From Lunularia cruciata (taxonomy: Eukaryota; Streptophyta; Marchantiopsida; Lunulariales; Lunulariaceae), in contig OX419755.1 of the NCBI GenBank assembly GCA_948567375.1, forward strand, positions 75,104,931-75,168,930: a stretch of 64,000 nucleotides of DNA, read 5' to 3'. Each line of letters starts with the position of its first letter. Positions within the stretch are counted from its first letter, which is position 1. The notes under the pieces are model-generated. The model saw only the letters and a list, made by a program, of their open reading frames with translations, did no database searches and was not told the origin of the DNA. The translations under genes and the position numbers were made by a program. This document shows, one piece after another, positions 25,789-56,305 of this stretch.

Positions 25789-25819
25789 TTAACATACAAA
25801 TTAGAAGGACAAGGAGTAC

Positions 25820-26505: not shown

Positions 26506-27360
26506 ATACAAAGACCTATATGAACCAAAATAAAAAGACCTTGATACAACTAAGCACAAGTGCATATTCAAGTAGGATGGTAGAGTGTAAAGAGAATTAG
26601 TATTTTAGAGTCCAATGAAGCAAAAGCATGTAGGTGGTGCAACTATATTAAATAGATTAAGGAGTGGATTTTTCACAAGCCTTTGTGATGATGCAAATAG
26701 AAGAGAATATGTGTTGTAGAATATCCTACAGGCTCATTTATAAGAATTTCATCAAGCTCATTTATAAGAATTTCATCAAGCTCATGAGAGTTTTCAAGGT
26801 GGTTAAATAATAAATGCATGTATAACATTATAATAGATGAAGGAATAGCTAATTGGAATGATTTAATTTTAACATAAAATTATTGAAAAGGCATGAATCT
26901 CTTTGGATTTTGAAAGAAAGCATACAAATTAGCGGTTTGATGGTTTATGCACTTGCTATTAAAAAGAATGGATTGCAAGAAGTAGCACAAGATACAGAAG
27001 GTTTTTCAAAGATAAAAAGTCTTTTATCTATTCTTATATAACATATGATCCAATATATATTAAAGGAGGAGGAAACTTCAATGAATGATTTTATACACAC
27101 CCTTGGATTTACATCTTGTAATTAAAATGCCTCTTGAAAAAGCAATACAATAGATAGAACAATTAATCTTGGAAAATATGGTTCAAAGTAATATCATAAC
27201 CTAATGTCACATAAAAGTACTATATTGATAAGAAACAAGTTGTTGCTTTGAGGATATGCGCAAAAATTATTGGAATTGAAGACTTGTGTCACTATATTGC
27301 ATTTTTATTATTATCATATTTAACCTCTTGGGGGTAGGAAAAACTCCTAAAAGAGGGGAG
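26506..27360. other. Decayed AT-rich sequence, no gene recognised
   Basis: No domain is recognised. A 27-bp unit containing CTCATTTATAAGAATTTCAT is tandemly doubled near 26,730-26,785. The segment ends in AAAAGAGGGGAG followed by TGTTATCCC, which resembles a polypurine tract before an LTR start. It may be the 3' tail of an unidentified plus-strand retroelement. Confidence 0.4.
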
Positions 27361-32922: not shown

Positions 32923-33028
32923 TGTTGTGCGTATATACATTGCTACACAACATACATTGCTGTCAACATCATACTCTATAGAAGCACAACTCACACATAA
33001 GTCATACATAGGCTCTAAAGTGCCACAA
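32923..33028 (-). repeat. G1 outer A repeat (3' end of the element)
   Basis: A 106-bp A repeat ends, on the minus strand, in TATATACGCACAACA at 32,923. It follows the 3' B repeat directly. A second A copy lies at 33,491-33,596 on the other side of B. Confidence 0.88.
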
Positions 33029-33488
33029 TAATCAGATTGTTTATAACTCTTGAATCCACTCAACTTAGATCATTACTTGATATGTCACTCTATAAACTGC
33101 CAACAATTGAGCACTGATTATAGTCAAGCCGCACCCAATCTAGCTAAGAGAATCTAGGTGATGCTCACCGGCCTTTGTCCACCATAGCCAAGAACTTAAA
33201 GACTCAACATCAAAGAAGTGAGCTCTCTCGAGCTGCACTTCAAAAGTTTACCCCTTGGACTCAAGCTAGGTCTGAAACCCTAATGGTCCTCCTGACGGCA
33301 CACTCGATGGTGCAAATAGTGCAAATGGTGCAAAGGGATGGTGGGCCCTACCGTGAAGTCAGTACCCCAAACACAAAATCTGACCGTCGCAACGTAGTCT
33401 TTGAGAAACTACTGAAATAACTCTAACTACTATCACTACAACTCTAGTGTCCGAGCAATCTAGATGCAAAACTACAAATGGCATGATA
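33029..33488 (-). repeat. G1 3' B repeat
   Basis: About 460 bp, beginning on the minus strand with TATCATGCCATTTGTAG and ending CAATCTGATTA. It is flanked on both sides by A repeats. It matches the 5' B at 53,487-53,925 and both B copies of G2. Confidence 0.88.
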
Positions 33489-33490
33489 GT

Positions 33491-33596
33491 TGTTGTGCAT
33501 ATATACATTGCTACACAACATACATCACTATCAAGATCATACACTATAGAAGCACAACTCACACATAAGTTATACATAGGCTCTAAAGTGCTACAA
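33491..33596 (-). repeat. G1 inner A repeat
   Basis: A 106-bp A copy lies upstream of the 3' B and is separated from it by two bases (33,489-33,490). It follows a purine-rich CAGCTAGGGAGGCAA on the minus strand, the place expected for a polypurine tract. Confidence 0.85.
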
Positions 33597-37500: not shown

Positions 37501-37839
37501 TCCAAGATCTGGCTCTCCCAAGTATCCTCTATAATTGTAGTAGGAGTGGAAGACGTCCTGATTGGTTGCTACACTGGCCCTTGGGAGCAATAGTGTCATG
37601 CCCTTGACCACTAGAGGTCCCAACCTCTGTGTGAAAAACTCCTTCCACTCTAGCTGCAAGCTCCACACATCCTCTAGTTGCATTCCAAGTGGACCAAGGG
37701 TGTAATCCAAGTAGCTCACGCTCACCTAGATGGACTCCAAGTAGACCACTTTCCCTAGTAGCTACTGGCTGTGTCTCAAGAATACCATGCCCACTCAGTC
37801 TATTGTCCCCAGCATGTGCCTGAATTGTCTTGATAGGCA

Positions 37840-38840
37840 TAGGGCTCACAAGTATCTGAGTGGTGATGCCTATCAAGTGCATCCTATGCTGCTCTGGCAA
37901 GCCAAGGCTCACAATCCAGGTCAAACAGTTCAGGTCTATAGCCTGATCTAACACCTAATGCTTGGATACCTCTAACACTTCTAGAACAGTGGTAATACCG
38001 GTGTGAAAACCCATCACATGCTCTCTCTCACCAGCTTTGAGCTCCACCAACTGTTGTAACTGTGAGTCCCAAACAAGTCCAAGTCCTCCCTCTCAAAAGC
38101 ATGAGAGCATGGGAAACTCATGAGTGTAGGAAATGCGGCTCTAGGCTGTCTAACTAGGTTCACCACTGCCATAGGTGACCTATCAGCCACTGTCTGAGAC
38201 TGACGCCCAACATCCAAGATATCATTAACAAGGATGTGGTCAAGTCGTTGAATCTCATCATAAGCACGCTATAGAACCTCTCTAGGTAAGAGGTTTGTCC
38301 ACCAAAAACAAAGATGATGAGCCCGTGATCCCACTCTGGCTGCATCTAACAATACAACAAGTCCCATCTAAGAATGGACCTGATGTGTACTTGCCACTAC
38401 TCTGGTGCAAGAAAAAGTAAGCTGGAGGAACGGATTGATGAACCTAGAGATGTCATTGTATCCATAACATCTCCCAAAACACACCAAAATAAGGATCCTG
38501 AAGACCCAAACCTCAGCCAGTATGTGTATGTCCCTGACATGGCCATCTAAAAATCACCAAGTGAATAGGTCTATACCTCTCTAGATCATGCGCCCCCAGT
38601 AAGGAAATGTCTATTGGTAGGGCCTTATGGTAACCTCTAACTGCTGATATTGGTAATAACTCCGGATACCAATAGACCAAGTGTGCCACATGATGTAGAG
38701 AGACTTGCCTAGCAGTCTCATCTCTCTCTAAATACAAGTACCTTTGTACTTGTATACCCGTCTGTAATATTGTAGCTAGTCTGGTGCTAATCACACTAAA
38801 CAACTCCAGTAGACATATCCCTTCTATTAGATACTACCAA
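37840..38840 (-). pseudogene. Cytosine-5 DNA methyltransferase region of G1
   Basis: The minus strand shows VQRYLYLERDETARQVSLHH, LVIFRWPCQGHTHTG (catalytic P-C motif IV), VGRQSQTVADRSPMAVVNLV and LDQAIDLNCLTWIVSLGL, in the same order as in G2. Its presence in both elements shows that the domain belongs to the family and is not a chance insertion into one copy. The region is decayed. Confidence 0.82.
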
Positions 38841-39299
38841 GCAATGTGTGTGGTATCCCAATGTGTCAAAGTAATCAACTATGGAGGCTCATCCTCACTC
38901 TCATCTCCTAATGGTATGAAGGCTCTACTCCAAACTTGCTGCACCAACTGATCTGCATGTTGCTACAATGCCTCCTCTGAACTCCATAATGGAACAATCC
39001 CACTTGTACTCCAAATCCAAGTGATCTTCTCTGGTACTGAGTATCCTCTACATGGCTATTCCCCTCCAACAAGTCACCAGACCAAGTAATTGTACCACTG
39101 AAAGCTAAAATTGATGCTGCAATAGTCTCGGACTGTAGTGAGCCAAGACTGCCACTACTAAAGCGTACTAGTAGGCAACATACCCGTCCCTCACCAGAAT
39201 GCCAACCTCGTCTATAGGAAGATGTCTCCTCCCAATAGTCAATGTTGAAACCCATGGGGTATAACACTGCTTCCCCAACTAGCACATCATATGACTCAA

Positions 39300-39900: not shown

Positions 39901-40231
39901 GTAGTAGGTAGCTGACTAGTAGGTAGTCCATCATGCACTTCATCACCACCTACCACACCTGCAATGGGATGTCTAGGAGCCATGGATGTCACTACAATGC
40001 CTCAAATAGTGTGAAAGATTGAGAAAGTCCGACCTATCTCCAACCTCTCCTCTTTGTGGGTCCATCTCCACTGATGCTCCTCTAGGCTCTAGAGCATGCA
40101 CTGCACCCCTAGTCACTATTGTAGATGCATCCACCTATGTTGCTCTGCACATGAAGTCCAAAGCATCTCTATCACTATCATATGAGGTGGAAGCCTCAAC
40201 ACCCAAATCCGATCTCCTCTAAGCCATGGCC

Positions 40232-40921
40232 TGTAACACCCATTTGTGCATGTGTGTGGTATTGTGATATTTAGCTTGGTATTACAAGTACTTAAGAGAT
40301 ATTATTTATATAGAGATAAAGGATGGTTCTATATTAGTCAGGTTAGCTAAATTTAGTCATAGCTAAGATAGAGGGGACCTTACTTTAGAGGAAGTAGAAA
40401 AGATGAGCACCACTATTTTGGATTCTAGTGTGTTGACTTGGTATTATTCCTAAGTGTTTGGCTTTGAGGAAAGAGTTGAGAACTCTTGGGCCCGCAAGCC
40501 TTTTTGTTTTGGATTCTTCTTTAGTCCAAGGATAGCCTATGTGAAGGAATCCTTGACTTAGTGGTTGGGTCAAGATAAGACCACATGCTTAGGGGAACAT
40601 GCCCATGTGAATGGATATTCCTTTCTACTTTTTGACTTGACTTGACTTTTATCTAGTAACTTGAGTTACTACGATAATTAGTAACTTTGGTACGTAATTA
40701 TTTCACAAGTATATAAACAAGGGGTGAGGAGGTACTCATCATCCTTTCATTTGCAACTATCTCTCTCTCATTGAGTTCTCTAGTGAGCAATGTCTTGACT
40801 CTTGGAGTGTTAGCCTTGGAGGAGTATGATGGAGTTGGGGTTCTTTGCCTTCTTAGTCCATGGTGCGCTACCATAATAGCCATCAGAGGTTCATCTTGAG
40901 TGAGAGACAGGCCGGCTCACA
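40232..40921 (+). mobile_element. T-family solo LTR, copy D, in G1 Gag tail
   Basis: A 690-bp LTR in plus orientation (opposite to copy C), with a TATA-like TATATAAA at 40,710-40,717. Its flanks share about four bases (GGCC before, AGCC after). The unfilled site is seen in G2 near 46,475 (AGTATGGCTATTGCTCAG). It inserted after G1 was in place. Confidence 0.92.
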
Positions 40922-40924
40922 AGC

Positions 40925-42240: not shown

Positions 42241-43305
42241 CACTCCTATGTCAAACTCCAACCTAGAGTCAATTTCCTCCCTCACTTGGACCTAAGATAC
42301 AGGTTGATATCAAGTACCACTCCGAGTAAACCTATTGCGTAATGCAAGGCTATCTCTTCTGGAATCCCCAAAGAACTCTATTGTGACAAAGTAACGGCAA
42401 CCGCAAGTACACCACCAAGTGCCAATACCAACTAAGCACCACCCACTAATGTAACTCTAACCAAGATAACTACACCAAGGGAAAGGGCAACCTGTGACCT
42501 GCCATCACAACGCACACTCTCACGGTCTACAAGTCATCATTTCCTACCTCACCTGAGAGAAACAAAGGTAGTTTGACTAGTCATCACTCCAACCTCACTA
42601 CCGAGAGCACACCAAAGCACCAATGCTCAAAAGTCAAGGCACCTCACACAAACGTGGTACAAAAATAGGAAGTAGAGAATGGAAGGGGTCCAATCACAAG
42701 AAATCTAAATGAAAACCCTCCATCTCATTGAACAGCATGGGATTGACTCTACCACCATTTGGCTTTTGACATAAGAGAAGTTTGTATCTAAGTCCTAAGC
42801 TACTAGGATCACCAAGAATGGGATCAAACTGCCTCTCCTAGCCAAAAATACAAGTGTATAGATAACAATGGCATAGTCACTAGGACAACAAGTGAGGGTG
42901 GACCAGTTGGCTAGGGCACCAGTCTAGGTACAAGAGATCTAGGGGTCAAACCCTATTACACACAATCTAGCAAGATGGGCAGATTTTGCTAACCAATGAC
43001 CAAGATCTACTCTAAACTAGCTAGCCTTGCGCCAGCAAGCTGGCTTGCTGGCCCTTCTAGGCCTTAATAGCCTCTCATAGCCCATAGCCCTATGCCTCAA
43101 AGCCTCTAAACGCCCAAATGAGGCCTTTCTTCTTGCCACTTCAAACCTCCTCCAAAATCTGGCAAAACTCCTCCAAACTTGCAAAAGTCCTCCAACTTGG
43201 CAAAACTCTTCCAAATCTGGCCAAAATATGATGTAAAATCCAGCCAAAATCTGACGTAAAATCTGACATAAACCCTAAAGTTGGCTAACAGCCAAATCCT
43301 CCATT
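42241..43305 (-). other. Leader of G1, main part
   Basis: This non-coding leader lies between the 5' B repeat and Gag. It matches 44,122-44,910 of G2 in reverse. The remaining part is at 53,139-53,486, beyond G2. A tRNA-like segment lies at about 42,868-42,955. The sequence CATT at 43,302-43,305 is the left half of the G2 target duplication. Confidence 0.8.
42868..42955 (+). repeat. tRNA-like (SINE-head-like) segment in the G1 leader
   Basis: In plus orientation, antisense to G1, TGGACCAGTTGGCTAGGGCA resembles an RNA polymerase III A box. GGGTCAAACCC about 40 bp later resembles a B box. The same segment is in the G2 leader, so it was in the family before the two copies separated. It is not a functional tRNA gene by appearance. 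Confidence 0.4.
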
Positions 43306-43754
43306 TGTCACGCCATTTGTAGTTCCGCATCTAGTTGCTCGGACACTGGAGTTCTAGTGATAGTAGTTAGAGTTATTCTAGTAGTTTCTCAAGGACTACT
43401 TTCCGACAGTCTGATTTGGTGTTCGGGGTACTGACTTCACGGTGGGGCCCACCATCACTTTGCACCGTTCGCACAGTCGAGTGTGCCATCAGTGGGACCG
43501 TTAGGGTTCTAGTGCTAGCTCGAGTCCAGGGGGTATAGTTTCGAAGTGAGCTCCAGAGAGCTCACTTCTTTGATGTTGAGCCTTCGAGTTCCTGGCTATG
43601 GTGGACAGAGGCCGGCGAGCGTCACCTGGATTCTCTATGCTTGAGTGGGTGTGGCTTGATTGTAATCAGTGCCCAGTTGTTGGCAGTTTATAGAGTGATA
43701 GATCAAGTACTGATCTGAGTTGAGTTGAGTGGAGAATGTTAAGCAATCTGATTA
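43306..43754 (+). repeat. G2 5' B repeat
   Basis: 449 bp, TGTCACGCCATTTGTAG to CAATCTGATTA, directly after the target duplication CATT. No A repeat precedes or follows it. The leader starts right after it. It matches the 450-bp 3' B. Confidence 0.92.
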
Positions 43755-44914
43755 CATTAGAGAAGTGAAGTCAGGGGGAAATCGGGTGTAGGAACATTGA
43801 GTGTTGGTGGTATCTCAAAGCTCGATGGATCGTGGTAGCTCAATTCAAGTTCTGTGTTTCCCTAGTGTGCAGAAGCTCATTTAGTTGATGCACATTTGGC
43901 AGTTAAGCGGATGGTGTGCGGAAGCGCTGGCTAAATTTTGAGCAAAGAAGGGGCAATTTTTGAGCAGTGTTGTGATTTTAAGCTCAGGAGGTGAAGGCAG
44001 GACCAATTTGCTGCAAGTTGGGCTCAGAAAGTGAAATTGAAGGTGGAGTTGGGAAGCTCTTCTCATGAAATTGTGATTTGGAAAAACCTGTTTTGTCAAT
44101 TTGGCTCGAGTAGAAAGTTAGTGGGGGATTTGGCGGACATCTATCTTTAGGGTTTATGTCAGATTTTACATCAGATTTACGTCAGATTTTGGGCCAGGTG
44201 GCAACAAGAAAGGCCTCATTTGGCTAAATTTTGGCGTTTTGAGGCTTTGAGGCATAGGGCTGTGGGCTATGAGAGGCTACGAAGGCCTAGAAGGGCCAGC
44301 AAGCAAGCTTGCTGGGCGTGAGGCTAGCTAGTTTAGAGTAGATCTTGGTCATTGGTTGGCAAAATCTGCCTTTCTTGCTAGATTGTGTGCAATAGGGTTT
44401 GACCTCTAGATCTCTTGTTACTAGACTGGTGCCCTAGCCAACTGGTCCACCCTCACTTGTTGTCCTAGTGACTGCGCCACTGTTATCTATACACATGTAG
44501 CTTTGGCTAGGAGAGGCAATTTGATCCCATTCTTGGTGATCTTGGTAGCTTAGGACTTAGATACGAACTGCTCTTATGTCAAATGCCAAATGGTGACAGA
44601 GTCAATCCCGTGTTGTGTTATGAGATGGAGGGTTTTCATTTGATTTCTTGTGATTGGATCCCCTCCATTCTCTACTTCTTGTTTGTGCACCACGTTTGTG
44701 TGAGGTGCCCTGACTTTTGAGCGTTGGTGCTCTGGTGTGCTCTCGATGGTGAGGCTGGAGTGATGACCAATCAGACTACCTTTGTTTCTCTCTGGTGAGG
44801 CAGGAAGTGATGACTTGCAGACCGTGAGAGTGCGTGTTATGATGGCAGGTTACAGGTTGCCCTTTCCCCTAGTGTAGTTATCTCAATAGAGTTACATTAG
44901 TGGGTGGTGTTTAG
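43755..44914 (+). other. Leader of G2
   Basis: A long non-coding stretch between the 5' B repeat and Gag. No standard tRNA-Met primer site is seen after B (the sequence is CATTAGAGAAGTGAAG), so the primer is unknown. It holds a tRNA-like segment in antisense at 44,393-44,480. Confidence 0.75.
44393..44480 (-). repeat. tRNA-like (SINE-head-like) segment in the G2 leader
   Basis: The minus strand reads TGGCGCAGTCAC, then TGGACCAGTTGGCTAGGGCA, and then GAGGTCAAACCC. This order resembles A and B boxes of a tRNA-derived SINE. The counterpart in G1 is at 42,868-42,955. Function is unknown and the match is partial. Confidence 0.4.
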
Positions 44915-46320
44915 TTGGTGTTGGCACGTGGTGGTGTTGGCACTTGGTGGGGTACTTGCGGTTGCGACTTGCGGTTGCAGTTGGTGGTTCAGGTTTGCTA
45001 TTGCAGTTACGTGGTCACAACGGAGTTCTTTGGAGATTCCAGAGGAGTTAGCCCTGCAGTACACAATGGGTTTACTTGGAGTGGTGCTTGGTATCAGCTT
45101 GTATCTCAGGTCCCAGTGAGGGAGAAGATTGACTCTGAGTTGGAGTTTGACACAGGAGCTAATTCAGTTGAGAGTGCACTTGGTGTGTCCGCACCGTTGT
45201 TGTGGGACATGGACGAGATTTATGGGGCCTCCAAAGGCCCTAGGTGTTACTCTGGTACAGTGGGTACCATTGAGTTGGATGACTTGATCCAGGAGTTTGA
45301 TAGTTGGTGTGATCTGCAGCAGATGCGGAACCCGACTATGTTCACACCTTTCATGGCATGGAAAGGGTTGTTTCAGCACTTGGAGGGTCCGCCAATGGAT
45401 GACTACCATGAGTTCAAGAGAGCTCATTTGGAGGAGATTGAGTTATGGAGACAGTATTGGTCTCCACACTATGTCTCCATCACTTCAGGCTCGGTGGCCA
45501 GGAGTAGATTGGCTGTACCTACTAGTTCTAGCTTGAGTAGTGTTGGTGGAGCTAGTGGAGGTGCACTAGCTAGAGATAGTGCTACTACAAGTGGAGGTAC
45601 CACTGTAGGAGGTGGTGTGGTATCGGGTTTAACCCCATGGTGGAGTTCTTCTTGTGTTTGAGGTAGAACTACCAGGGAGTGCGGACTGACAAGCTGAGGA
45701 GCTTGCAGGAGTTCCAGCGGAAGGCTGGAAAGAGCCTACGTGAGGCATACACTCCCATGAGGCGGCTGATCAATTTCACTCAGGGAGTTATTGAGGCCCA
45801 GGCAGTCCACTTTTGGTATGGGATATTGGACAGGGAGTCGCGACGTAGAGTTTGTGATGCTACGTTGTTGCAGGCTACTTTGCCAACTTTGGCAGTAGTC
45901 TTTGGTTTGGCTGAGCGTATTGAGCTCAACATGGTGGAGGAGAGAGTGGTGACATCTGGATTTGGTAGAGAGACCTCATCCACAGTTGTGACTTCTTCTA
46001 GAGTGCAGCAGAGTGCACCACGCCCAGTTGGTTTTTGAGGACAGGGTGGACAGCCCAGATCCTATGGAGCGAGTGGAGGGCCTAGTGGAGTTAGACCCTT
46101 ACCCTCATTTTTGGGTCAGCAACAGCCAGTAAGTGGTGGTGTTGCTTGTTGGACTTGTAGTGGACCTCACCATAGGAGAGAGTGTACTCAGAGCAGCGGA
46201 CCTGATACCTCTGGTGCATCACAGCCAGCATAGAGGCAGTGTGAGCACTGCCACAGATTTGGTCACACTAGTGACTGGTGTTTTGACCTACACCCGGAGT
46301 TACGGAGTGGTAGGGCTGCT
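44915..46320 (+). pseudogene. Gag of G2
   Basis: The Gag structural protein of the fossil element. The body has a helical stretch LRSLQEFQRKAGKSLREAYT and VIEAQAVHFWYGI typical of retrotransposon Gag. Two zinc-knuckle segments follow, ACWTCSGPHHRRECTQ and CEHCHRFGHTSDWC (about 46,141-46,285). The second is a classic C-x2-C-x4-H-x4-C knuckle that would bind RNA. The N-terminal part is Gly/Val-rich and less certain. The same region is present in G1. Confidence 0.82.
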
Positions 46321-46500
46321 ATGGCAGGTAGTAGAGGAGCTCCAGTTCATGGAGGACGAGGTGGTAGAGGTGGTGGTAGAGGATCTACACCTAGTAGGGA
46401 TGCAGTACCTGCCCTTACTTCTGACACAACTATGGCTATTCGGATTGAGCAGTTGGAGCAGAGATTGGCTAGTATGGCTATTGCTCAGAGGAGATCAGAT
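46321..46500 (+). pseudogene. RGG-rich Gag tail of G2
   Basis: Directly after the zinc knuckles lies a Gly/Arg-rich run (HGGRGGRGGGRGSTPSR), then a short helical segment IEQLEQRLASMA. RGG boxes bind RNA in many proteins, so it probably supported the nucleocapsid role. G1 has the same tail. Confidence 0.7.
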
Positions 46501-46549
46501 TAGGGTGCTGAGGCTTCCACCTCATATGCGGGTGATAGAGATGCTTTGG

Positions 46550-47880
46550 ACTTCATGTGCGGAGCAGCACAGGTGGATGCATTTGCAGCAGTGACTAGGA
46601 GTGCAGTACGTGCTCCAGAGCCTAGAGGAGCATCAGTGGAATTGGACCCACAGAGAGGAGAGGTTGGGAGACAAGTCAGACTTCCCCAGTCTTTCACGCT
46701 ATCTGAGGCATTGCAGACGACATCCATGGTTCCTAGACGTCCCAGTGCAAGTGTGGTAGGTGGTGATGGAGTACATGATGGAGTACCTGCTAGTCAGCCA
46801 CCTGCTACTACACAGACTGAGTCTAGCATGATGTTGGGGGCGGCTCAACTGATTATGCGGCATCCTTTATTTTTAGCCAGTGACATGTTTACATTGGGAG
46901 TTGACCCAGCCCCAGTGTTCCGGTTGGCTGCCATGTTGTGTGAGAGTAGGGATGGTGCAGTTCCTACTACTAGAGCAGAGGTGGTTGGTAGTGGAGCTGA
47001 CTTGGTTGAGGAGCATGGGATCCGTTCAACGACCAGTGGTTTATGGCAGGCAGCAGCGGCTAGACTGGAGGAGTTGCCAGCTAGACCGGCCTTTGAGAGA
47101 GCGCGGTTTACACTTGGTGTTGTCCTATTGGATAACCAGAGGGGGATCTTTCATTTGGTGGGACCTTCAGGGAAGGTCTATACACCACAAAGAGTCTTGT
47201 TAGACTTTGGTGCGCAGCCCCTTATGTTGGGGAAGGCTGCAGTTATTGGTCTGGAGTTACGGAAGACCAATGTGGAGAGGTGTCCATTTCAGATCCAGAC
47301 ATCTCTTGGTGGTGGTTCAACATAGTACATCACATGTGGAGAGCTTGTTGTCTAGGTTTAGCCTGGTCATCCGACTGATAGCTCGGTGGTGAGAGCTCAG
47401 GCTATTGCGACGATAGCTGAGTCATATGATGTGCTAGTTGGGGGAGCAGTGTTATACCCTATGGGTTTCAACATTGACTATTGGGAGGAAACAACCTCTT
47501 ATAGACCTGGTTGGCAGTCTGGTGAGGGACGAGTATGTCGCCTACCAGTACGCCTCAGTAGTGGCAGTCTTGGCTCACTACAGTTCGGGACCATGGCAGC
47601 ATCAATTTTGGCTTTCAGCGGTGCAGTCACTTGGCCTGGTGACTTGTTGGAGGAGAACGCCCATGCAAAGGATACTCCAGTACCAGAAGAGATCACTCGG
47701 CTATGGAGTACGAGTGGGATTGTTCCATCCACCTTGGATGTTCCATTGTGGAGTTCAGAGGAGGCATTGCAGCAGCATGCAGATCAGTTGGTGCAGCAGG
47801 CTTGGAGTGGAGCCTTCATACCATCAGGGGATGAGTGTGAGGATGAGCCTCCAGAGGCGATTGCTTTGACACCTCTGGAT
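46550..47880 (+). pseudogene. Retropepsin-like protease region of G2
   Basis: The segment FHLVGPSGKVYTPQRVLLDF followed by GAQPLMLGKAAVIGLEL (about 47,145-47,260) has the hydrophobic-D-x-G-A active-site pattern of retroviral-type aspartic proteases. A further part, YDVLVGGAVLYPMGFNIDYW (about 47,415-47,480), resembles the C-terminal half of gypsy proteases (L-L/V-G ... ) known from algal and plant elements. About 400 bp of linker lead into the methyltransferase. I am confident of the family but not of the exact borders. Confidence 0.7.
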
Positions 47881-47899
47881 ACCACACTCATTGCTTGGC

Positions 47900-48900
47900 A
47901 GTATCCAGTAAAGGAGATATGCCTATTGGAGTTGTTTGGTGGGATCAGCACCGGACTAGCTGCGGTGTTACAGGCGGGTATCCGAGTACAGAGGTACTTG
48001 TATGTAGAGAGAGATGAGACTGCTAGGCGAGTCTCTCTACATCATGTGGCACACTTGGCATATTGATATCCGGAGTTATTACCGATGTTAGCAGTCAGAG
48101 GTTACCAAAAGGCCTTACCAGGAGACATTTCCTTATTGGGGGCGCATGACCTAGAGAGACATGGGCCTATTCACTTGGTGATTTCTGGATGGCCATGTCA
48201 GGGACATACACGTGCGGGCCGTGGTTTGGGTCTTCAGGATCCTCGTTCTGGTGTGTTTTGGGAGATGTTACGGATACTACGACATCTCCAGGTTCATCAG
48301 TCTGTTTCTCTAGCTTACCTTTTGGAGAACGTTCCATTGATGGGTGATTCCCGCACTAGAGTGGTGGCAAGTACACATCAGGTCCATTCATGGATGGGAC
48401 CTGCTGTATTGTTAGATGCAGCCAGAGTGGGATCACGGGCTCATTGTCTTTGTCTTTGGTGGACAAACCTCTTACCTAGAGAGGTTCTACAACATAGTTA
48501 TGATGGGATTCAGCGACTAGACCACATTCTTGTTGATGATATCTTGGATGTTGGACGTCAGTCTCAGACAGTGGTAGTGGCTGATAGGTCACCTATGGCA
48601 GTGGTGAACCTAGTTGGATAGCCTAGAGGTGCATTTCCCACACTCATGAGTTTCCCAGGCTCTCATGCTTTTTGAGAGGGAGGACCTGGACTTGTTTGGG
48701 ACTCACAGTTACAGCAGTTGGTGGAGCCCAATGCTGATGAGATAGAGCGGGCGATGGGTTTTTGCACCGATATTACCGCCGTTCCAACGGTGTTAGAGGC
48801 ATCCAAGCATCAGGTGTTAGGTCAGGCTATGGACCTGAACTGTTTGACCTGGATTGTGAGCCTTGGTTTGGCAGAGCAGCGTAGGATGCGCTTGATAGGC
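47900..48900 (+). pseudogene. Cytosine-5 DNA methyltransferase domain of G2 (DNMT3/DRM-like)
   Basis: A domain that would transfer methyl groups from S-adenosylmethionine to cytosine in DNA. Motif I is LLELFGGISTGLAAVLQAGI (about 47,924-47,985), followed by RYLYVERDETARRVSLHH (motif II zone). Motif IV is SGWPCQGHT with the catalytic Cys at about 48,196. Motif VI is LLENVP (about 48,319-48,336). Then come a motif VIII-like LWWTNLLP (about 48,455-48,480), VDDILDVGRQSQTVVVADRS, and motif IX/X-like ERAMGFCTD and HQVLGQAMDLNCLTWIVSLG (48,745-48,870). The VERDE and WxxNLP features recall DNMT3/DRM enzymes. It sits between protease and reverse transcriptase. The copy is broken. Confidence 0.88.
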
Positions 48901-49299
48901 ATCACCACTCGGACACTTGTGAGCCCTGTGCCTATCGAGACGATTCAGGCACATGCTGGGGGTAATGGACCGAGTGGACATGGTATTCTTGGGACACATC
49001 CAGTAGCTACTAGGGAGAGTGGTCTACTTGGAGTCCATCCAGGTGAGCGTGGGCTACTTGGATTACACCCTTGGTCCACATGGGATGCAGCTAGAGGACG
49101 TGTGGAGCTTGCAGCCAGAGTGGAGGGAGTTTTTCACACAGAGGTTGGGACCTCTAGTGGTCGGGAGCATGACACTATTGCTCCCAAGGGCCCAGTGTAG
49201 CAGCCAGTCAATACGTCTTCCACTCCTACTATAGTTATAGAGGATACTTGGGAGCCAGATCTTGGACCCAAGCTTACTGGAGAGGAAAGATGGAGGGTT

Positions 49300-50690
49300 T
49301 GGAGGTTCTTGAGGAGTCACACGAGTTGTTTTGCCTTTAGTATGAAGGATTTGGGTGCTCTGAAGGGACCTGGTATACAAATTGAGCTGACTAGCGACAC
49401 ACCTGTTTTCCAACGTCCTTATCGATATAGTGATATGGAGAGGACATTGATTCAGAGCCGGAGTAGTGACCTTTTTGAGGCTGGTTTGGTGGAGATTTCA
49501 CATGGAGAGTATACATTAGCAACAGTGATGCCAACCAAGAAGGATATGCATGGCAACTATACAGATAGGCGGATATGTGGAGATTACTGTCCTATCAACC
49601 GACAGACCAGGGCTGATCGGTATGCCATGCCTACACCGGAGGAGATTTTTGATGCGATTGGGCATGCAAAGGTCTTCAGTACTTTGGATCTTTGAGCAGG
49701 ATATCATCAGTTGTCGATCAGGGAGGAAGATAAGTCCAAGACAACATTTTGGGCTATTGATCCTCACGGCAAGGATGTGTTATATCAGTGGAGGTTCTTA
49801 CCATTTGGGTTGAAGAACGCTCCTGCTGAGTTCCAGAGGGTCATGGATAGGATCCTAGCTAGATTGGATTTTGCTCGGTGTTATATTGATGACATTTTGG
49901 TCTATAGCACTACTGTAGAGGAGCATGAGAGACAATTGTTGGAGGTGTTTGAGAGGTTGAGATCTCATGGACTCAAACTACATCTTGGGAAGTGTAGGTT
50001 CTTCCATGAGCAGGTTGAGTATTTGGATCACACTATCTACCCCGGAGGACTTGGTGTTCAGCAGACCAAGGTGGAGGCTATTGCACGTATTCCTTGGCCT
50101 ACGGATGTGAGCAGAGTGCGAGCATTCTTTGGGTTGGCGAACTTCTATCGCCGCTATGTTAGAGGATTTAGTGCCATTGCCAAGGCCTTGACAAAGCTGA
50201 CCAAGCTTACACAAGAGTGGTGTTGGGGAGATGAGCAGGAGAGAGCTTTTGTAGAGCTCAAGGAGAGGTTGACATCTGCTCCTATTTTGAGGGGACGACC
50301 ATTTCAGGTTCACACTGATTGGAGTATGTTGGAGCTTGGAGCGGTGCTCACCCAACATGATGATGAGGAGAAGGAGTTTGTGGTGGCCTATGCTAGTCGC
50401 TCCAACAATTCAGTAGAGGCAAAGTATAGTTCATATGAGGGAGAGTGCTTGGCAGCAGTTTGGGCAGTAGCACATTTCCGATGTTACCTATTTGGTAACC
50501 CCTTCACTCTCATCACTGATCATCAGCCGGTGAAGTGGTTGATGGAGTCTGACAAGCTTTCAGGGAAGCTTGCACGATGGGCTCTGATTTTACAGGAGTA
50601 TGATTTCACGGTTGTTCATAGACCTGGAGTGGTGAACCATGATGCAGATGGGTTGAGTAGAAACCCATGTCCCAGCCAGTAGGATCAGAC
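49300..50690 (+). pseudogene. Reverse transcriptase-RNase H of G2
   Basis: RT copies the element RNA to DNA, and RNase H removes the RNA. Seen are IELTSDTPVFQRPYRYS, YAMPTPEEIFDAIGHAKVFS, FLPFGLKNAPAEFQRVMDRI and CYIDDILVYS (active-site Y-I-D-D at 49,883-49,894). RNase H follows with VHTDWSMLELGAVLTQ, LITDHQPVKWLMESDKL and NHDADGLSRNP (about 50,310-50,670). This is a typical Ty3/gypsy order with the so-called RNase H-like second type. The region is well kept. Confidence 0.92.
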
Positions 50691-50969
50691 TGGAGCACGT
50701 TGGCATGGTGAGACAGATGAGGAGATGGTGCCAGGTTGGCATGCATTGGCCTTTCTGTGTATATTTGCAGAGGCTTTGGTGGTATCTCTCTCAGCGCATA
50801 GAGGAGGAGTTATTGAGGTCACAGATCCAAAGAGTGAAGATATTGGTACAGTTCAGCAAGACATTCATGATGATGTCTTAGTGATGGACTATCTTCGCAC
50901 TGGTGTTGTGGGTGGCACAGTTGGGGCCAAGGAGAGAGACCGTGTTCTTTAGTAAGCCAGACGGTTCAG

Positions 50970-51750
50970 ATTGGAGGGTAGACACCTTTTGCATGTATGG
51001 GAGGATGGTAGAGTGCGAGTAGTACCACTTCCATCACAGAGACCACAGTTGGTCCGTCATGCTCATGAGGAGCTAGGACATTTTGGAGTAAAGCATACAT
51101 ATAGCTTACTCCAGAGTCATTATTGGTGGCGCGGTATGCAGACCAAGGTACAATAGTTTGTTGCCAGATGTATGGTTTGTGACCGAGTTAGAGCATCATT
51201 CAATGCTCCTACGCCACAGTTACATCCATTACCTATCATGGGATTGGGTTACCGTTGGAGTTTGGACTTTGCCGGACCTTTACCGCTGACTGTGAGACAT
51301 CATCGGTACGTTTTGGTGATGGTGGAGCACTTCTCCAAGTGGATTGAGTTGGTGGCACTTCCTAACAAGTCTAGTGAAGGGACGGCTTACTCGTTCCTGG
51401 ATCGAGTTCTTAGTCATTTTGGTGCACCAGCTGAGGTTTTGACTGATCAGGGTACAGAGTTCTTGGGGGAGTTTCAGGTCTTGTGTGACAAGGCTTTGAT
51501 TGATCATCATACTACATCCCGAGATCACCCTGAGGCATATGGCTTAGCAGAGAGAGTGGTTCAGACGGTGAAGAGTGGATTGCGAAAGTATGGTTTGCAG
51601 AGAGGCCACTTGGGAGATTGGGATCTCCAGTTACCTTGGTTGGCCATGGGCTATTGGTTCAGCCAGCAAGCCTCCTTAGCATCCTTCTCTCCATACTTTC
51701 TACTCTATGGACAAGATCCAGATTTACCTGCAGCCATTTGTCGAGATGCT
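50970..51750 (+). pseudogene. DDE integrase of G2
   Basis: The enzyme inserts the cDNA into chromosomes. The zinc-binding N-terminal part shows HAHEELGHFGVKHTYSLLQ and ARCMVCDRV (about 51,056-51,188). The catalytic core shows WSLDFAGPLP (about 51,256), LTDQGTEFLGEFQVL (about 51,439) and HPEAYGLAERVVQTVK (about 51,526), the D, D and E parts in that order. This matters because split terminal repeats are otherwise known mainly from tyrosine-recombinase retroelements, and no tyrosine recombinase is seen here. Confidence 0.92.
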
Positions 51751-52302
51751 ACTGTAGTTTTGGACTTGGATGACCCCAATGTGTGGATGAGCACATGTTC
51801 TCAACGGGCAGAGATCTTTCGGAGAATGATGCCGATGGCCTTTGAGAACTTGACGATTGCTCAGCATAGAGATACTTTATGCTATGCTACCATTCAAGGA
51901 GGAGGTTATAGACCCTCAATCCGTCGATTTCATCCAAGCGACTATGTATATCTACAGCAGACAGCACCGACGACACTTGATGTTTCGATAGGCCGCACTA
52001 TCTTGAGGGTGCGCAAGATTTTTCCATCTGGTGTCCTTGTGTTAGAAGGACGTGATGGTGTTGTTTGGAAGGATCATGTGTGCAATTGTGCGCCATGCCA
52101 CCTCCCAAACATTGATGGTACTATGGACCCAAGCTTGGCACTTGTACGTGCAGGCTTGAGGTGTATGTTATGTGGCTCTTCTGGTGGAGCTGCTACTATG
52201 TTAGTGTGTGATAGCTGTTCGAGAGGATGGCATATGGCATGTATGACTCCTCCCCTCACGGTGGTTCCTCAGGGACAGTGGTTATGTCCTAGATGTACTT
52301 GA
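51751..52302 (+). pseudogene. Integrase tail with PHD finger of G2
   Basis: After the integrase core comes a C-terminal domain (FHPSDYVYLQQTAPTTL, VRKIFPSGVLVLEGRDGVVW). The chain then ends in a PHD zinc finger at about 52,162-52,300: CMLCG, CDSC, GWHMAC and WLCPRC give the C4-H-C3 order, with the conserved W two residues before the final Cys pair. PHD fingers read histone H3 tails. The place at the integrase end is where chromoviruses carry a chromodomain, so the finger may have guided integration. G1 carries the same module. Confidence 0.88.
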
Positions 52303-52454
52303 CCTATAGCTAGTTCATTCTTTATATGGTATAGATTGCAGACAGGCGACTAACGATGAGGCTCCATAGCACCCGGCCTCCTGATCTTTGCCCATTAGAG
52401 GGTATACCATATACTTAGAGTAGATGGCTATCTGGAGTTAGAGGGACCTAACCG

Positions 52455-52470
52455 CCAGCTAGGGGGGCGA
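52455..52470 (+). promoter_or_regulatory. Polypurine tract of G2
   Basis: CCAGCTAGGGGGGCGA lies directly before the inner A repeat. In LTR elements such a tract primes plus-strand DNA and marks the start of the 3' LTR. Here it marks the start of A, not of B. G1 has the related CAGCTAGGGAGGCAA at the same place. Confidence 0.7.
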
Positions 52471-52576
52471 TTATGGCACTTTAGAGTCTATGTATGACTT
52501 ATGTGTGAGTTGTGCTTCTATAGTGTATGATGTTGACAGTGATGTATGTTGTGTAGCGATGTATATACGCATGACA
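52471..52576 (+). repeat. G2 inner A repeat
   Basis: 106 bp, starting TTATGGCACTTTAGAG and ending TATACGCATGACA. It is followed by the two bases GT and then the 3' B repeat. It is the partner of the outer A at 53,029-53,134. Confidence 0.92.
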
Positions 52577-52578
52577 GT

Positions 52579-53028
52579 TGTCACACCATTTGTAGTTCCG
52601 CATCTAGTTGCTCGGACACTGGAGTTTTAGTGATAGTAATTAGAGTTATTCTAGTAGTTTCTCAGGGACTACTTTCCGACAGTCTGATTTGGTGTTCGGG
52701 GTACTGACTTCACGGTGGGGCCCACCATCACTTTGCACCGTTTGCACCGTCGAGTGTGCCGTCAGCGGGACCGTTAGGGTTCCAGTGCTAGCTCGAGTCC
52801 AGGGGGGTATAGTTTTGAAGTGAGCTCCAGAGAGCTCACTTCTCTGCTGTTGAGCCTTCGAGTTCCTGGCTATGGTGGACAGAGGCCGGCGAGCGTCACC
52901 TGGATTCTCTATGCTTGAGTGGGTGTGGCTTGACTGTAATCAGTGCCCAATTGTTGGCCGTTTATAGAGTGACAGATCAAGTACTGAGTTGAGTTGAGTT
53001 GAGTGGAGAATGTTAAGCAATCTGATTA
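52579..53028 (+). repeat. G2 3' B repeat
   Basis: 450 bp, TGTCACACCATTTGTAG to CAATCTGATTA. It matches the 5' B at 43,306-43,754 with about 18-20 differences and one single-base gap by eye. Most differences are C/T or G/A. Confidence 0.92.
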
Positions 53029-53134
53029 TTGTGGCACTTTAGAGTCTATGTATGACTTATGTGTGAGTTGTGCTTCTATAGTGTATGATGTTGACAGCGA
53101 TGTATGTTGTGTAGCGATGTATATACGCACGACA
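53029..53134 (+). repeat. G2 outer A repeat (3' end of the element)
   Basis: 106 bp, TTGTGGCACTTTAGAG to TATACGCACGACA. It is followed at once by CATT, the right half of the target duplication, which fixes the 3' end of the element here and not at the end of B. Confidence 0.92.
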
Positions 53135-53138
53135 CATT

Positions 53139-53486: not shown

Positions 53487-53925
53487 TTATCAGATTGTTT
53501 ACAACTCTTGAATCCACTCAACTCAGATTAGTACTTGATCTGTCATTCTGCCTGCCAACAATTGGGCATTGATTATAGTCAAGCCGCACCCACTCTAGCT
53601 AAGAGAATCCAAGTGATGCCCGCCGGCCTCTGTCCACCATGGCTAGGAACTCAAAGGCTCAACATCAAAGAAACGAGCTCTCTGGAGCTGCACTTTGAAA
53701 GTATACCGCTGGACTCAAGCTAGGTCTGAAACCCTAATGGTCCCACTGACGGGGACACTTGACGGTGCAAAGTGAAGGTGGGCCCTATCGTGAAGTCAGT
53801 ACCCCAAACACAAAATCTGACCGTTGGAAAGTAGTTTTTGAGAAATTGCTGAAATAACTCTAACTACTATCACTGCAATTCCAGTGTCCAAGCAATCTAG
53901 ATGCAACACTACAAATGGCATGATA
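53487..53925 (-). repeat. G1 5' B repeat
   Basis: About 439 bp, starting on the minus strand TATCATGCCATTTG at 53,925. No A repeat lies outside it; E3 sequence begins at once with TAGT. It has the same 5' border as in G2. Confidence 0.88.
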
Positions 53926-53988
53926 TAGTTGACATCATCAATGGGAAAAACAACTACAATTTTTGATACTAAGCTTGAATACAAACCC

Positions 53989-54525
53989 ATAAATTTTTAT
54001 GTCATTTCCAATACCTTGTCATGATAACTTGATTTGAAGATGCTTTCTAAATCTCCCATAATAACAAAAATCACCATAATGTTGACAAACCTAAAGGTAC
54101 ACATAGAGTTCAAGTTTTCTTTACAACAAGATGCTTTCTTTCATTTTGTGCAAAGTTGTTGTGTAGCAAAAACCATAAAGTTCTATGTCATCCCTATTAT
54201 CTTGTCACAACAACTTGATTTGAAGATTCTTTCTAAATCTCCCATGATAACAACAATCACCAAATTGTTGACAAACTCAAAGGTACACATAGAGTTCAAG
54301 ACTACGTTACAACAAGACCATTTCTTTCATTTTGTGCAAAGTAAACTTGTAGCAAAAACCATAAAGTTCTATGTCATCTACGATGCCTTGTCATGACAAC
54401 TTGATTTGAACCATGATAACATCAATAACTACAATGTTGACAAACTCAAATGTATATATAGAGTTCAAGACTACTTTACAACAAGACCCCTTCTTTCATC
54501 TTGTGCAAACTTGTTTTGTAGCACA
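53989..54525 (+). repeat. Tandem triplication in E3, 186-bp unit
   Basis: Three units begin ATAAA(T/G)TT(T/C)TATGTCAT at 53,989, 54,175 and 54,361. The first two are exactly 186 bp and the third is shorter. Each holds CTTGATTTGAA, ACACATAGAGTTCAAG and TTTCATTTTGTGCAAA (or close variants). 186 bp equals 62 codons, so the repeat keeps a frame open across the first two units (HIEFKTTLQQDHFFHFVQS is a unit marker). It lies between RNase H and integrase. Confidence 0.88.
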
Positions 54526-55907
54526 TGAAAAGGAGTGCAACACCTTTTCATTAAAAGATGACCTTTTTTTTGTTTGTAAAAACCAAATTTATGTTTTAGC
54601 AATTGGTAGATCTATGATTTGTGCAATTTCAAGAGGCACATGACTTACCAAAATTGGTGACCTTGAGTACCTTATAATGTCAATGGTGGCAGCCAAACAT
54701 AGCACAAGAAGTTCAAGAGTTTGTCCAATCTTATGAGAGTTACCTATGCAACAAAGCAAACAATCATAATCAAGGTGTACTACTCTAACCACTCCCTATT
54801 TTTTTTTGCCCAAAGAGAACATGTAAATCTATACCTCATTACATCCTTGCCAAAGATGGATCAAGGCCATACAACAATTATGGTGTTTGTTGATAAGATT
54901 AACAAGCAAATCTACCTAGCATCTACCATGAATATTGTCTATGCTCAAACATTGGCCCAAATATACTTCAATATAGTCTTCAAATACCATGGAATGAAAA
55001 GGGTCCGCATCTTTGATTAAGATCCACAATTCACTAGAAAATTTTGGCAAGCACTTTTCAAACTCCTTTGTACCAAGCTTACCTTGTCTATAACCTATCA
55101 TCCTCAAATTAATGGACAGAACAAATGAGAAAATCACATTTATGTGTTGTTGTCAATGTGCATCACATTGATTGGGATACTTATTTTGTGGATACCAAAT
55201 TAACGTACAATAATTCCAAGTAGACAAGTATAGGCTCTTCTCCCTTCTTCCTTAATTATGAGCAAAATCCACTTGTTCTAGATTCTCTTCTTGCTACACC
55301 ACCATCTCATGTCCCTCATACTTCCACCTTCTTGTTCCTAACTATCTACCACCACTACCACCACCAAGTCAAGTCTCATCTTCTTGTTGCTCAAAATTAA
55401 CAAAAGCAATATGTTGAGAGCCATAATCATGATCTTCCTTTTCAAATCAATGAAAGATTATACTCTCCTCCAATAAACTTCCTCTCCTACTTGACACCCA
55501 ATTTTATAAACTTGCTCCTATTTGGGTAGGTCCCTCATATATCATTCATATAATTGCTTGTGTTGCTTACAAACTTGCACTTCCTAGTCCATGTCTCAAA
55601 GTTAAAAACCCTTTGTTTCTTATCCATCTTCTTTTCCTACTTCTACACAACCTCCTCCTCTGATCTTATCAATAATCATGAAGAATAAAAGTTTGGTTAT
55701 ATATTTGCAAATTGCAACATCCAACATAATTGGTAGTAAAAAATTGAAAATAAGATCATCCTCTTCACTATGCTACATGGGAGCCTATTTCACATCTCCA
55801 AAAATTGCAAGCACTTATATGTGAGTTTGAAGATTCCATGGTGACAAGGGTATCACCAATATAGAGGAATATATATATAGATGGAGGAATATATTCTTGG
55901 AGGAATA

Positions 55908-56300
55908 TGTAACAATATGGAACTAGAAAAAGCTAATATAGAGTTAGAAAGAGTTAAATATAGCTAAAAGAGGAAAAATTAGCATATATCTAAGAAATTT
56001 TAAGAATGTTCTAGAAAGATCCAAGAAGCTTGTTGGTGAGAAGCTTCTAAAAACTTTCCAAGGATTGAGTGACTTGTATGCCAAGTTGACATTTAGCTTA
56101 GCTTACATGCCAAGTAAATGACTAACTTAGCTTGCACTTCAAGAAAGGTGGCTTTTAGAAGGAACCTTCCTTGGAAGCTTCTTGAGAACATTGTACCAAA
56201 ATACTAAAGCCCAAGCTCAAGCCAAGGATTTCAAGGTTCACTCATTTGAGAGTTCCTAATGTGATATTTTATTCTAATACTTCTCTCCTTGGTCTTTACA
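55908..56300 (+). mobile_element. 3' LTR of E3 (L family)
   Basis: 393 bp, TGTAACAATATGGAAC to GGTCTTTACA, followed by TTTAC (56,301-56,305), which repeats the five bases before the 5' LTR. This pair of ends shows that E3 spans the whole G1/G2 nest. Confidence 0.9.
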
Positions 56301-56305
56301 TTTAC

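What the first reader, a model, noticed from the sequence alone, without database searches (positions are those of the whole stretch)
47900..48900. A Ty3/gypsy element that encodes a DNMT3/DRM-like cytosine methyltransferase
Seen: motifs I (ELFGGISTGL), II zone (YLYVERDE), IV (GWPCQG), VI (LENVP) and IX/X-like segments lie in canonical order between protease and reverse transcriptase. The antiparallel sister G1 has the same domain at 37,840-38,840, so it is a stable part of the family. Known: cytosine methyltransferases captured by retrotransposons have been reported from dinoflagellates and a charophyte alga, as far as I recall; I cannot check whether this lineage is covered. Inference: the element once methylated DNA, perhaps its own copies, to reduce damage or to hide among silenced repeats.
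Basis: partly seen in the sequence, partly recalled or inferred. Interest (0 to 1): 0.93.

Follow-up and report, generated by a model that had tools for sequence, protein, structure and literature searches.

The report
Plant retrotransposon with DNA-methylating enzyme
A family of virus-like jumping genes in a bryophyte-like plant, with relatives in mosses, liverworts and green algae, carries its own DNA-methylating enzyme and a histone-reader-type domain, so it may write the same chemical marks that plants use to silence jumping genes.

Summary
Window 47,857-49,035 (+) encodes a cytosine-5 methyltransferase (PF00145, 33 bits, cut-off 22) inside a Ty3/gypsy element. It is family-wide: 66 of 111 scored own-genome matches have no stop in it, and relatives occur in Marchantia, Calypogeia, Sphagnum and green algae. 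DNMT3 is the nearest solved relative and motif VIII is DNMT3-like, but trees do not settle that origin. The kind is published: KnitGypsy-Dnmt3 in Klebsormidium (PMC5890265).

Not met in the papers searched: the enzyme ends ORF1 (gag-PR-MTase), before an in-frame UAG-CAR-YYA leaky-stop word (31 of 31 copies); a PHD finger follows the integrase; repeats are DIRS-like (A1-coding-B1-2 nt-A2-B2) although the integrase is DDE-type, with TGTC...GACA ends and 4-bp duplications (8 of 10 copies); algal relatives hold the enzyme between RNase H and integrase.

Most likely the enzyme methylates the element's own cDNA before integration; this is inferred. The window copy is dead (3 stops in the domain, motif VIII broken). 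Verdict: new variant of a known kind.

The parts
43302..43305 (+). 4-bp target-site duplication CATT, left side of element G2 (right side 53135-53138)
   Evidence: perfect 4-bp duplications in 8 of 10 copies with both ends located (8 of 9, G2 included; G1, read, is ACTA/ACTC)
43306..43754 (+). repeat A1, starts TGTC: left end of G2
   Evidence: 96% identical to A2
44915..46600 (+). gag part of ORF1 (frame broken in G2; limits approximate)
   Evidence: open frames; relative P0138 has a zinc knuckle upstream of protease and MTase
47083..47481 (+). aspartic protease (DxGAQPLMLG)
   Evidence: sequence; Asp_protease_2 in relatives P0138 and P0139; no Pfam match in the window piece itself
47857..49035 (+). 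cytosine-5 methyltransferase domain, C-terminal part of ORF1; 3 stops in this copy
   Evidence: relatives
49198..49206 (+). in-frame TAG CAG CCA between ORF1 and ORF2: UAG-CAR-YYA leaky-stop word
   Evidence: 31 of 31 copies match CAR-YYA; consensus in PMC3542737 (passage)
49300..50677 (+). reverse transcriptase and RNase H (ORF2)
   Evidence: RVT_1 3e-23, RT_RNaseH 2.6e-35
51055..52149 (+). DDE-type integrase (rve) and conserved C-terminal part ending CAPCHLP
   Evidence: rve 4.4e-13; alignment with algal relatives
52150..52299 (+). PHD finger, C-terminus of ORF2
   Evidence: PF00628 6.1e-11; matches to solved PHD fingers of CHD4, KMT2D, KDM5B, PHF21A, ATXR5
52457..52470 (+). polypurine-tract-like AGCTAGGGGGGCGA directly before B1
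52471..52576 (+). repeat B1, ends GACA
52577..52578 (+). 2-nt spacer GT between B1 and A2
   Evidence: 2-nt spacer and A2 in 31 of 32 copies where B1 and its downstream side were seen
52579..53028 (+). repeat A2
53029..53134 (+). repeat B2, ends GACA: right end of G2
53489..53925 (-). repeat A1 of the older element G1, cut off from its body by the insertion of G2
37700..38860 (-). methyltransferase region of G1, decayed (limits by proportion from the alignment to G2)
   Evidence: open pieces
32923..33596 (-). B1 (33491-33596), 2 nt, A2 (33029-33488), B2 (32923-33028) of G1

Best explanation
A Ty3/gypsy-related retrotransposon of a bryophyte-like plant makes two proteins from one frame: Gag-protease-methyltransferase, and, when a leaky UAG is read through, a longer form that adds RT-RNase H-integrase-PHD. 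The methyltransferase is thus made at Gag level and should enter the particle. The protease frees it, and it methylates the newly made double-stranded cDNA, most likely de novo at CG as shown for other retrotransposon DNMT3s, so that the new copy arrives already marked like host heterochromatin. The PHD finger on the integrase reads an H3 tail, probably unmodified at K4, and steers integration or anchors the complex. Termini A1 and B2 are regenerated each round from the internal B1-A2 junction, and the integrase joins TGTC...GACA ends with a 4-bp duplication. Shown: domains, order, conserved leaky-stop word, repeats, ends, target duplications, copy number, dN/dS below 1. Inferred: expression, readthrough, packaging, enzyme activity, substrate, PHD ligand, replication path, benefit.
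For: Domains. Nearest solved relatives of P0001: DNMT3A 6.1e-12, DNMT3B 1.4e-9, DRM 1.2e-8, HaeIII 3.5e-4, HhaI about 4e-3; profile A1: DNMT3A 3.7e-16. Motif VIII AHR.R.[YWF]W in 128 of the 161 (of 268 held) family proteins that have a GWxC word and over 130 residues after it, in 0 of 10 bacterial/phage controls. ORF1 and ORF2 abut in one frame in 5 of 10 copies fetched whole, the others having a further stop or frameshift there; UAG-CAR-YYA in 31 of 31 (CCA 28, CTA 1, TCA 1; G2 CCA). Median pairwise dN/dS: MTase 0.40, PR 0.29, RT-RNase H 0.30, IN 0.51 (27-30 sequences per region). PCQ in 28 of 29, ENV in 29 of 29 own-genome copies; all three motifs and no stop in 10 of 29. 66 of 111 MTase matches without a stop. 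Ends and duplications; B1-2 nt-A2 in 31 of 32. Integrase C-terminus plus PHD 42-47% identical to algal relatives, no match in another gypsy of the same genome. De novo CG methylation by the DNMT3s of two SymbioDIRS copies in yeast: PMC5890265 (passages).
Against: No expression, protein or methylation data. The nearest published relative, KnitGypsy-Dnmt3, gave no methylation in yeast (called inconclusive because human DNMT3B failed too). The MTase dN/dS is higher than that of PR and RT, and only 12 of 30 sequences have no stop in it (PR 20 of 30, RT-RNase H 5 of 30). Copies are close kin (mean dS 0.03-0.07), so shared words partly reflect descent. Trees do not show a DNMT3 origin. Many algal relatives carry GWECQ instead of GWPCQ (37 against 150), so activity may differ. 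Non-DNMT retrotransposons transpose in the hosts studied by de Mendoza et al., so the enzyme is not needed to transpose. PHD similarity does not prove a ligand.
Confidence: 0.55

Rival explanations
1. The methyltransferase acts on RNA (the element's genome or the primer tRNA), or only binds nucleic acid, rather than on cDNA.
For: It rides on Gag, which handles RNA; many algal relatives have ECQ and some ENT instead of PCQ and ENV; de Mendoza et al. raise RNA methylation for SymbioLINE (PMC5890265, section 11).
Against: Solved-structure ranking places DNMT3 far above the DNMT2/tRNA enzymes (E 0.007-0.021). PCQ and ENV are kept in 28 and 29 of 29 own-genome copies.
Confidence: 0.15
2. The enzyme is a self-restraint or host-manipulating device: it marks element copies for silencing (slowing its own spread) or disturbs host methylation, rather than protecting cDNA.
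For: Plants use cytosine methylation to silence repeats; the host has its own DNMT3, DRM and CMT-type genes (L001-L004). De Mendoza et al. list slowing of transposition as one option.
Against: The family is numerous and 66 of 111 matches have an unbroken MTase stretch, which does not look restrained. No methylation data.
Confidence: 0.22
3. The methyltransferase is of bacterial or viral rather than host DNMT3 origin and only resembles DNMT3.
For: The element enzymes sit on a long branch; in one tree a bacterial sequence is nearest at 91/98; holding elements with bacterial enzymes is not rejected, p-AU 0.51.
Against: The 10 bacterial and phage controls have P[QH]xRxR at motif VIII, none AHRxRx[YWF]W (controls were those fetched); rank order.
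Confidence: 0.2
4. The A-coding-BAB arrangement is an ordinary LTR element with rearranged ends, or arises because a symmetric two-LTR circle is opened at either B-A junction.
For: PPT-like sequence right before B1 and repeats that could make an LTR of the form B-nn-A.
Against: 31 of 32 copies have the same 3' arrangement with the same 2-nt spacer, and 4-bp duplications flank A1 and B2. A symmetric circle would give the other isomer half the time.
Confidence: 0.08

Closest known systems
KnitGypsy-Dnmt3, Klebsormidium nitens (de Mendoza et al. 2018, PMC5890265)
   Same: Gypsy domain set, DNMT3-related unrearranged methyltransferase in the coding frame, repeats arranged as in DIRS (their Fig. 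4c legend), purifying selection on the enzyme domain.
   Different: Named bryophyte and chlorophyte members here. The paper's main text has no occurrence of PHD or target site and puts the enzyme in the Pol ORF. The exact domain order and sequence of KnitGypsy could not be compared here.
SymbioDIRS-Dnmt3 and SymbioLINE-Dnmt of Symbiodinium (same paper)
   Same: Retrotransposons with cytosine methyltransferase; the DIRS type has A-coding-B-A-B repeats; the two SymbioDIRS forms also differ in domain order.
   Different: Tyrosine recombinase or LINE machinery instead of DDE integrase; the paper treats them as unrelated acquisitions.
PAT/Ngaro-type tyrosine-recombinase retrotransposons (PMC4157794)
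   Same: Split direct repeats A1-B1-A2-B2.
   Different: They lack the integrase gene and transpose without target-site duplication (passages); here the integrase is rve-type and 4-bp duplications are seen.
Chromodomain gypsy elements (chromoviruses)
   Same: A chromatin-reading domain at the integrase C-terminus (recalled; PMC2864245 seen only as a listing).
   Different: PHD finger instead of chromodomain.
UAG-CAR-YYA leaky stop of plant viruses
   Same: The nine-base word (PMC3542737, passage; its tobamovirus origin is recalled).
   Different: Here it separates gag-PR-MTase from RT-IN in a retrotransposon; readthrough itself is not shown.

Membership tests
Ty3/gypsy LTR retrotransposon | RT, RNase H, then DDE integrase in this order | tested here: met
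   (algal relative P0163 best match Ty3 7q5b, 6.5e-75)
Ty3/gypsy LTR retrotransposon | two identical direct LTRs at the two ends | tested here: not met
   left end has A only, right end B-A-B; 31 of 32 copies with located B1. Hence gypsy-related, not a standard LTR element
Ty3/gypsy LTR retrotransposon | TG...CA ends and 4-6 bp target duplication | tested here: met
   TGTC...GACA; 4-bp duplication perfect in 8 of 10 copies, G1 and G2 included
DIRS/PAT/Ngaro | split direct repeats A1-...-B1-A2-B2 | tested here: met
DIRS/PAT/Ngaro | tyrosine recombinase and no target duplication | tested here: not met
   rve integrase and duplications
DNMT3 methyltransferase family | canonical (unpermuted) motif order | tested here: met
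DNMT3 methyltransferase family | DNMT3 closest among solved relatives, DNMT3-type motif VIII | tested here: met
DNMT3 methyltransferase family | groups with DNMT3 in a supported tree | tested here: inconclusive
   72/77, p-AU 0.51 for the alternative; contrary placement
DRM | rearranged motif order (VI-X before I-V) | tested here: not met
   order I-IV-VI-VIII-X in the element; the host DRM is rearranged (L002)
KnitGypsy-Dnmt3 | Gypsy coding set with DNMT3-related domain and DIRS-like repeat arrangement | tested here: met
   against text of PMC5890265
KnitGypsy-Dnmt3 | sequence kinship with the Klebsormidium element | not testable with these tools
Active de novo methyltransferase | methylates CG in a test system | not testable with these tools
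   needs bench work

The most novel reading that the evidence does not exclude
A deep green-plant lineage of gypsy-related retroelements, in chlorophyte algae, bryophytes and this plant, is built as a self-contained chromatin machine: it writes cytosine methylation on its own cDNA with a Gag-borne or Pol-borne methyltransferase, reads histone H3 with an integrase-borne PHD finger (a DNMT3-ADD-like pairing assembled anew), and replicates through split direct repeats with a DDE integrase, which would be a replication scheme of its own between LTR and DIRS elements. The enzyme was captured once and later moved within the polyprotein.
Probability: 0.4. Interest if true: 0.85.

Novelty: new variant of a known kind. 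Interest (0 to 1): 0.62.

Why it matters
Cytosine methylation is a main weapon of plants against transposons. A transposon family that carries a writer of that mark plus a histone-reader-type domain, is numerous with many copies unbroken in the enzyme, and has relatives in bryophytes and green algae would turn a single published algal gypsy case into a testable general phenomenon: are new insertions born methylated, and does that hide, protect or restrain the element? Split repeats with a DDE integrase and 4-bp duplications break the usual link between split repeats and tyrosine recombinases. Marchantia polymorpha, a laboratory plant, carries relatives with long frames, so these questions can be asked in a tractable host.

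Tried and rejected
Rejected: chance match (then 111 own-genome matches); private insertion (same); DRM (motif order); prokaryotic contamination (84.9-Mb contig in a genome with DNMT3, DRM and CMT-type exons); symmetric opening of a two-LTR circle (31 of 32 copies have one 3' arrangement). A first reading of a 4-nt B1/A2 spacer (second notebook entry) was wrong and is corrected to 2 nt.

Led nowhere: Rfam on the window (no match); IMG/VR scans (2 distant phage-type enzymes; none); GTDB contigs (8 bacterial enzymes, used only as controls); Foldseek (switched off), so the AlphaFold model of P0001 (mean pLDDT 72.5, pTM 0.78) was not compared. The domain search inside one search returned nothing, probably because of an option error, and was redone, where the PHD probe was out of frame and is ignored. 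The test for within-copy sameness of A1/A2 and B1/B2 was weak: own partner uniquely nearest in 4 of 9 and 3 of 11. RT identity separates little: 37-44% to nine algal relatives, 35% to another gypsy of the same genome. No primer binding site was identified. No DNA of other algae or bryophytes was at hand, so split repeats outside this genome are known only from the Klebsormidium legend.

Dropped rows: sequences with 20% gaps or more per region were left out (of 31: PR, MTase, RT-RNase H 30 kept, IN 27, IN C-terminus 28, PHD 12). In one search, two of 55 proteins flagged as not RT-MTase-IN by the script (P0153, P0185) were reclassified by eye: P0153 has no RT domain listed, and in P0185 the word match lay outside the Pfam-placed MTase; hence 54 of 54 with an RT. 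In the B1-A2 count, L038 (cut off inside B1) and L040 (B1 deleted, partial A then B) are not counted. In the duplication count, L025 and L027 (no A1 within the fetched 7 kb) are not counted; L013 matches A1 only over its first 74 bases but is counted.

Full report
WHAT IS THERE. The window lies on contig C1 (84.9 Mb) of an unnamed 565.8-Mb, 74-contig genome. Element G2 spans 43306-53134 on the + strand. Pfam finds DNA_methylase (5.7e-8, 33 bits against a cut-off of 22), RVT_1, RNase H, rve integrase and a PHD finger. One + strand frame carries them all, broken by stops. The methyltransferase region is 47857-49035. G1, the antiparallel sister, is older: its 5' end lies at 53925 and its body at 43139-32923, because G2 is inserted into the 5' untranslated part of G1.

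IT IS A FAMILY TRAIT. A PF00145 search of the own genome scored 123 of 2,161 candidates, at least four of them host genes. A search with P0001 scored 111 of 13,362 candidates, all at 72-74% identity, 66 of 111 without a stop inside; the tool calls such counts lower bounds. In 29 own-genome copies (30 fetched, one dropped for gaps), PCQ is present in 28, ENV in 29, the motif VIII word in 21, and all three with no stop in 10. G2 keeps PCQ and ENV but has 3 stops in the domain and lacks the motif VIII word. Pairwise dN/dS medians are MTase 0.40, PR 0.29, RT-RNase H 0.30, IN 0.51: the enzyme has been under constraint, a little less than PR and RT. Without an internal stop are PR 20, MTase 12 and RT-RNase H 5 of 30 sequences.

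READING FRAMES. In other copies ORF1 (up to 1,428 aa in rows) is gag-PR-MTase and ORF2 (1,037 aa, open throughout in L019 and L021) is RT-RNase H-IN-PHD; the two abut in one frame in 5 of 10 copies fetched whole. Between them stands TAG CAG YYA: CCA in 28, CTA in 1 and TCA in 1 of the 30 fetched copies, and CCA in G2. This is the UAG-CAR-YYA readthrough consensus of plant viruses (PMC3542737, passage). The copies are close kin, so 31 of 31 is not 31 independent trials; by my estimate a given UAG meets CAR-YYA by chance about once in 512. ORF1 also ends at the matching place in Marchantia (P0123, P0124), Calypogeia (P0122) and the unnamed P0012 (sequences; my reading by eye).

ENDS. BLAST shows A1-coding-B1-2 nt-A2-B2. 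A1 begins TGTC and B2 ends GACA. Of the 10 copies fetched whole, 8 had both ends. With G2, 8 of 9 show a perfect 4-bp duplication; the failure is L019, whose A1 and A2 are also unusually different (89.9%). G1, which I read, has ACTA/ACTC, so 8 of 10 in all. In 20 further copies sampled only at the 3' end, 20 of 20 have B1-2 nt-A2; with 9 fetched copies, G1 and G2 this makes 31 of 32, the exception being L027, where B1 runs straight into other DNA. Split direct repeats are described for PAT and Ngaro elements, which use a tyrosine recombinase and make no target duplication (PMC4157794, passages). Here an rve integrase and duplications go with split repeats. A PPT-like tract stands just before B1. 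A symmetric two-LTR circle opened at either junction would give two isomers equally, which the counts speak against, so some directed regeneration of the ends from B1-A2 is needed; I cannot say which.

WHAT KIND OF METHYLTRANSFERASE. Against solved structures P0001 finds DNMT3A 6.1e-12, DNMT3B 1.4e-9, DRM 1.2e-8, HaeIII 3.5e-4, HhaI about 4e-3; the profile A1 gives DNMT3A 3.7e-16, with an alignment down to the C-terminal motifs. Motif VIII is AHR.R.[YWF]W in 128 of 161 family proteins with enough sequence (268 held), as in DNMT3A (AHRARYFW), and in 0 of 10 bacterial/phage controls. Motif order is canonical, so it is not DRM. Trees: the element enzymes form one group at 99-100, with a supported algal-type group (95/92, 96/92, 100/96) and, a supported group of the rest (100/99, 97/97). 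Their bond to DNMT3 is weak (72/77) and not exclusive (p-AU 0.51 for elements with bacteria); a bacterial sequence was nearest (91/98). Most cellular references were single exons or short printed segments (24-40% of columns), which limits these trees.

WHO ELSE HAS IT. (MTase piece): 149 proteins, 120 listed, species named from Calypogeia, Sphagnum and Marchantia (and one record named as a bacterial MAG). (longer piece, region of the MTase): 29 proteins, named rows mostly Marchantia polymorpha, with Calypogeia and Sphagnum fallax. (MTase region of P0145): 161 proteins, 120 listed; rows with a species name are Scenedesmus sp. PABB004 and Haematococcus lacustris (and one bacterial MAG); the rest are metagenome or EukProt entries without a species. 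In this algal type the order is RT-RNase H-MTase-IN-PHD: 54 of 54 proteins with an RT that show all marks (53 by script, P0185 by eye), PHD word after IN in 48 of 55. Pfam maps of P0145, P0163 and P0185 agree. The backbone is related too: own IN against nine algal INs 40-54% but 33% against another gypsy of the same genome; integrase C-terminus plus PHD 42-47%, with no match in that other gypsy; RT separates less (37-44% against 35%). Both enzyme types share a stretch of about 18 residues before motif IV that the host DNMT3s and DNMT3C lack and DRM mostly lacks (alignment). This suggests one capture and a later move within the polyprotein; exchange between elements is not excluded.

HOST. The best named relatives are bryophytes. 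The genome has own DNMT3 exons (L001, L004), a rearranged DRM (L002) and a CMT-type exon (L003). Eight contigs of 60-85 Mb (C1, C2, C6, C7, C8, C10, C11, C12; lengths) make up about 558 of 565.8 Mb, which would suit a liverwort; this is inference.

PHD. The window PHD matches solved PHD fingers of CHD4, KMT2D, KMT2C, PHF12, DPF3, KDM5B, PHF21A and ATXR5; that of algal P0163 best matches UHRF2, Lid, KDM5, UHRF1, BAZ2 and ATXR5. Several of these read H3 unmodified at K4 or R2 (recalled). A ligand is inference.

MECHANISM. Most likely: enzyme made with Gag, packed into the particle, methylating the double-stranded cDNA before integration. Shown: architecture, conservation, ends. Inferred: everything about activity. 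De Mendoza et al. propose cDNA methylation for SymbioDIRS and showed de novo CG activity for those enzymes in yeast, while KnitGypsy-Dnmt3 was inconclusive (PMC5890265; seen: outline and abstract, sections 9 and 11, passages).

NOVELTY. The kind is published (KnitGypsy-Dnmt3: gypsy set, DNMT3, DIRS-like repeats). PMC12344493 (passages) restates retrotransposon-embedded DNMT3 in streptophytes and dinoflagellates, there assigned to LTR Copia and DIRS families. My searches of the open library (read as listings) did not show a report of the bryophyte or chlorophyte members, the PHD finger, the leaky stop or the target duplications; most subscription journals, preprints and supplements were not searched. 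Hence: new variant of a known kind.

Noticed in passing
window 13315-14012, 25816-26514, 34675-35365, 40227-40922: A repeat of about 690 bp occurs four times (83-93% identical), two of them nested inside element G1; probably a small element or solo LTR.
   Followed up: no
window 9339-17541, 30624-32922, 54366-56306: Several degenerate copies of another repeat family (mostly 67-71% identity to each other); an open frame at 54703-55020 looks copia-like by eye.
   Followed up: no
window 53970-54523: Tandem array of about 186-bp units beside the 5' end of G1.
   Followed up: no
P0195, P0200, P0206 (algal relatives): After the PHD finger these proteins carry a C-terminal segment with DPF(A/S)G, recalling adenine or N4-cytosine methyltransferases; no Pfam match there in P0206.
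   Followed up: partly
family proteins P0001-P0268: Motif IV reads GWECQ in 37 proteins against GWPCQ in 150; some of these also have ENT for ENV.
   Followed up: partly
L027 (G000:C2:62723604-62730603): One copy ends at B1 and runs directly into unrelated DNA, with no A2-B2: possibly another integration product.
   Followed up: partly
P0054, P0228: Records named as bacterial MAGs (Obscuribacterales, Minisyncoccia) hold these element proteins: likely contamination.
   Followed up: no
L001, L004 (own genome C7, C1): At least two cellular DNMT3-type loci in the host beside DRM and CMT types.
   Followed up: partly
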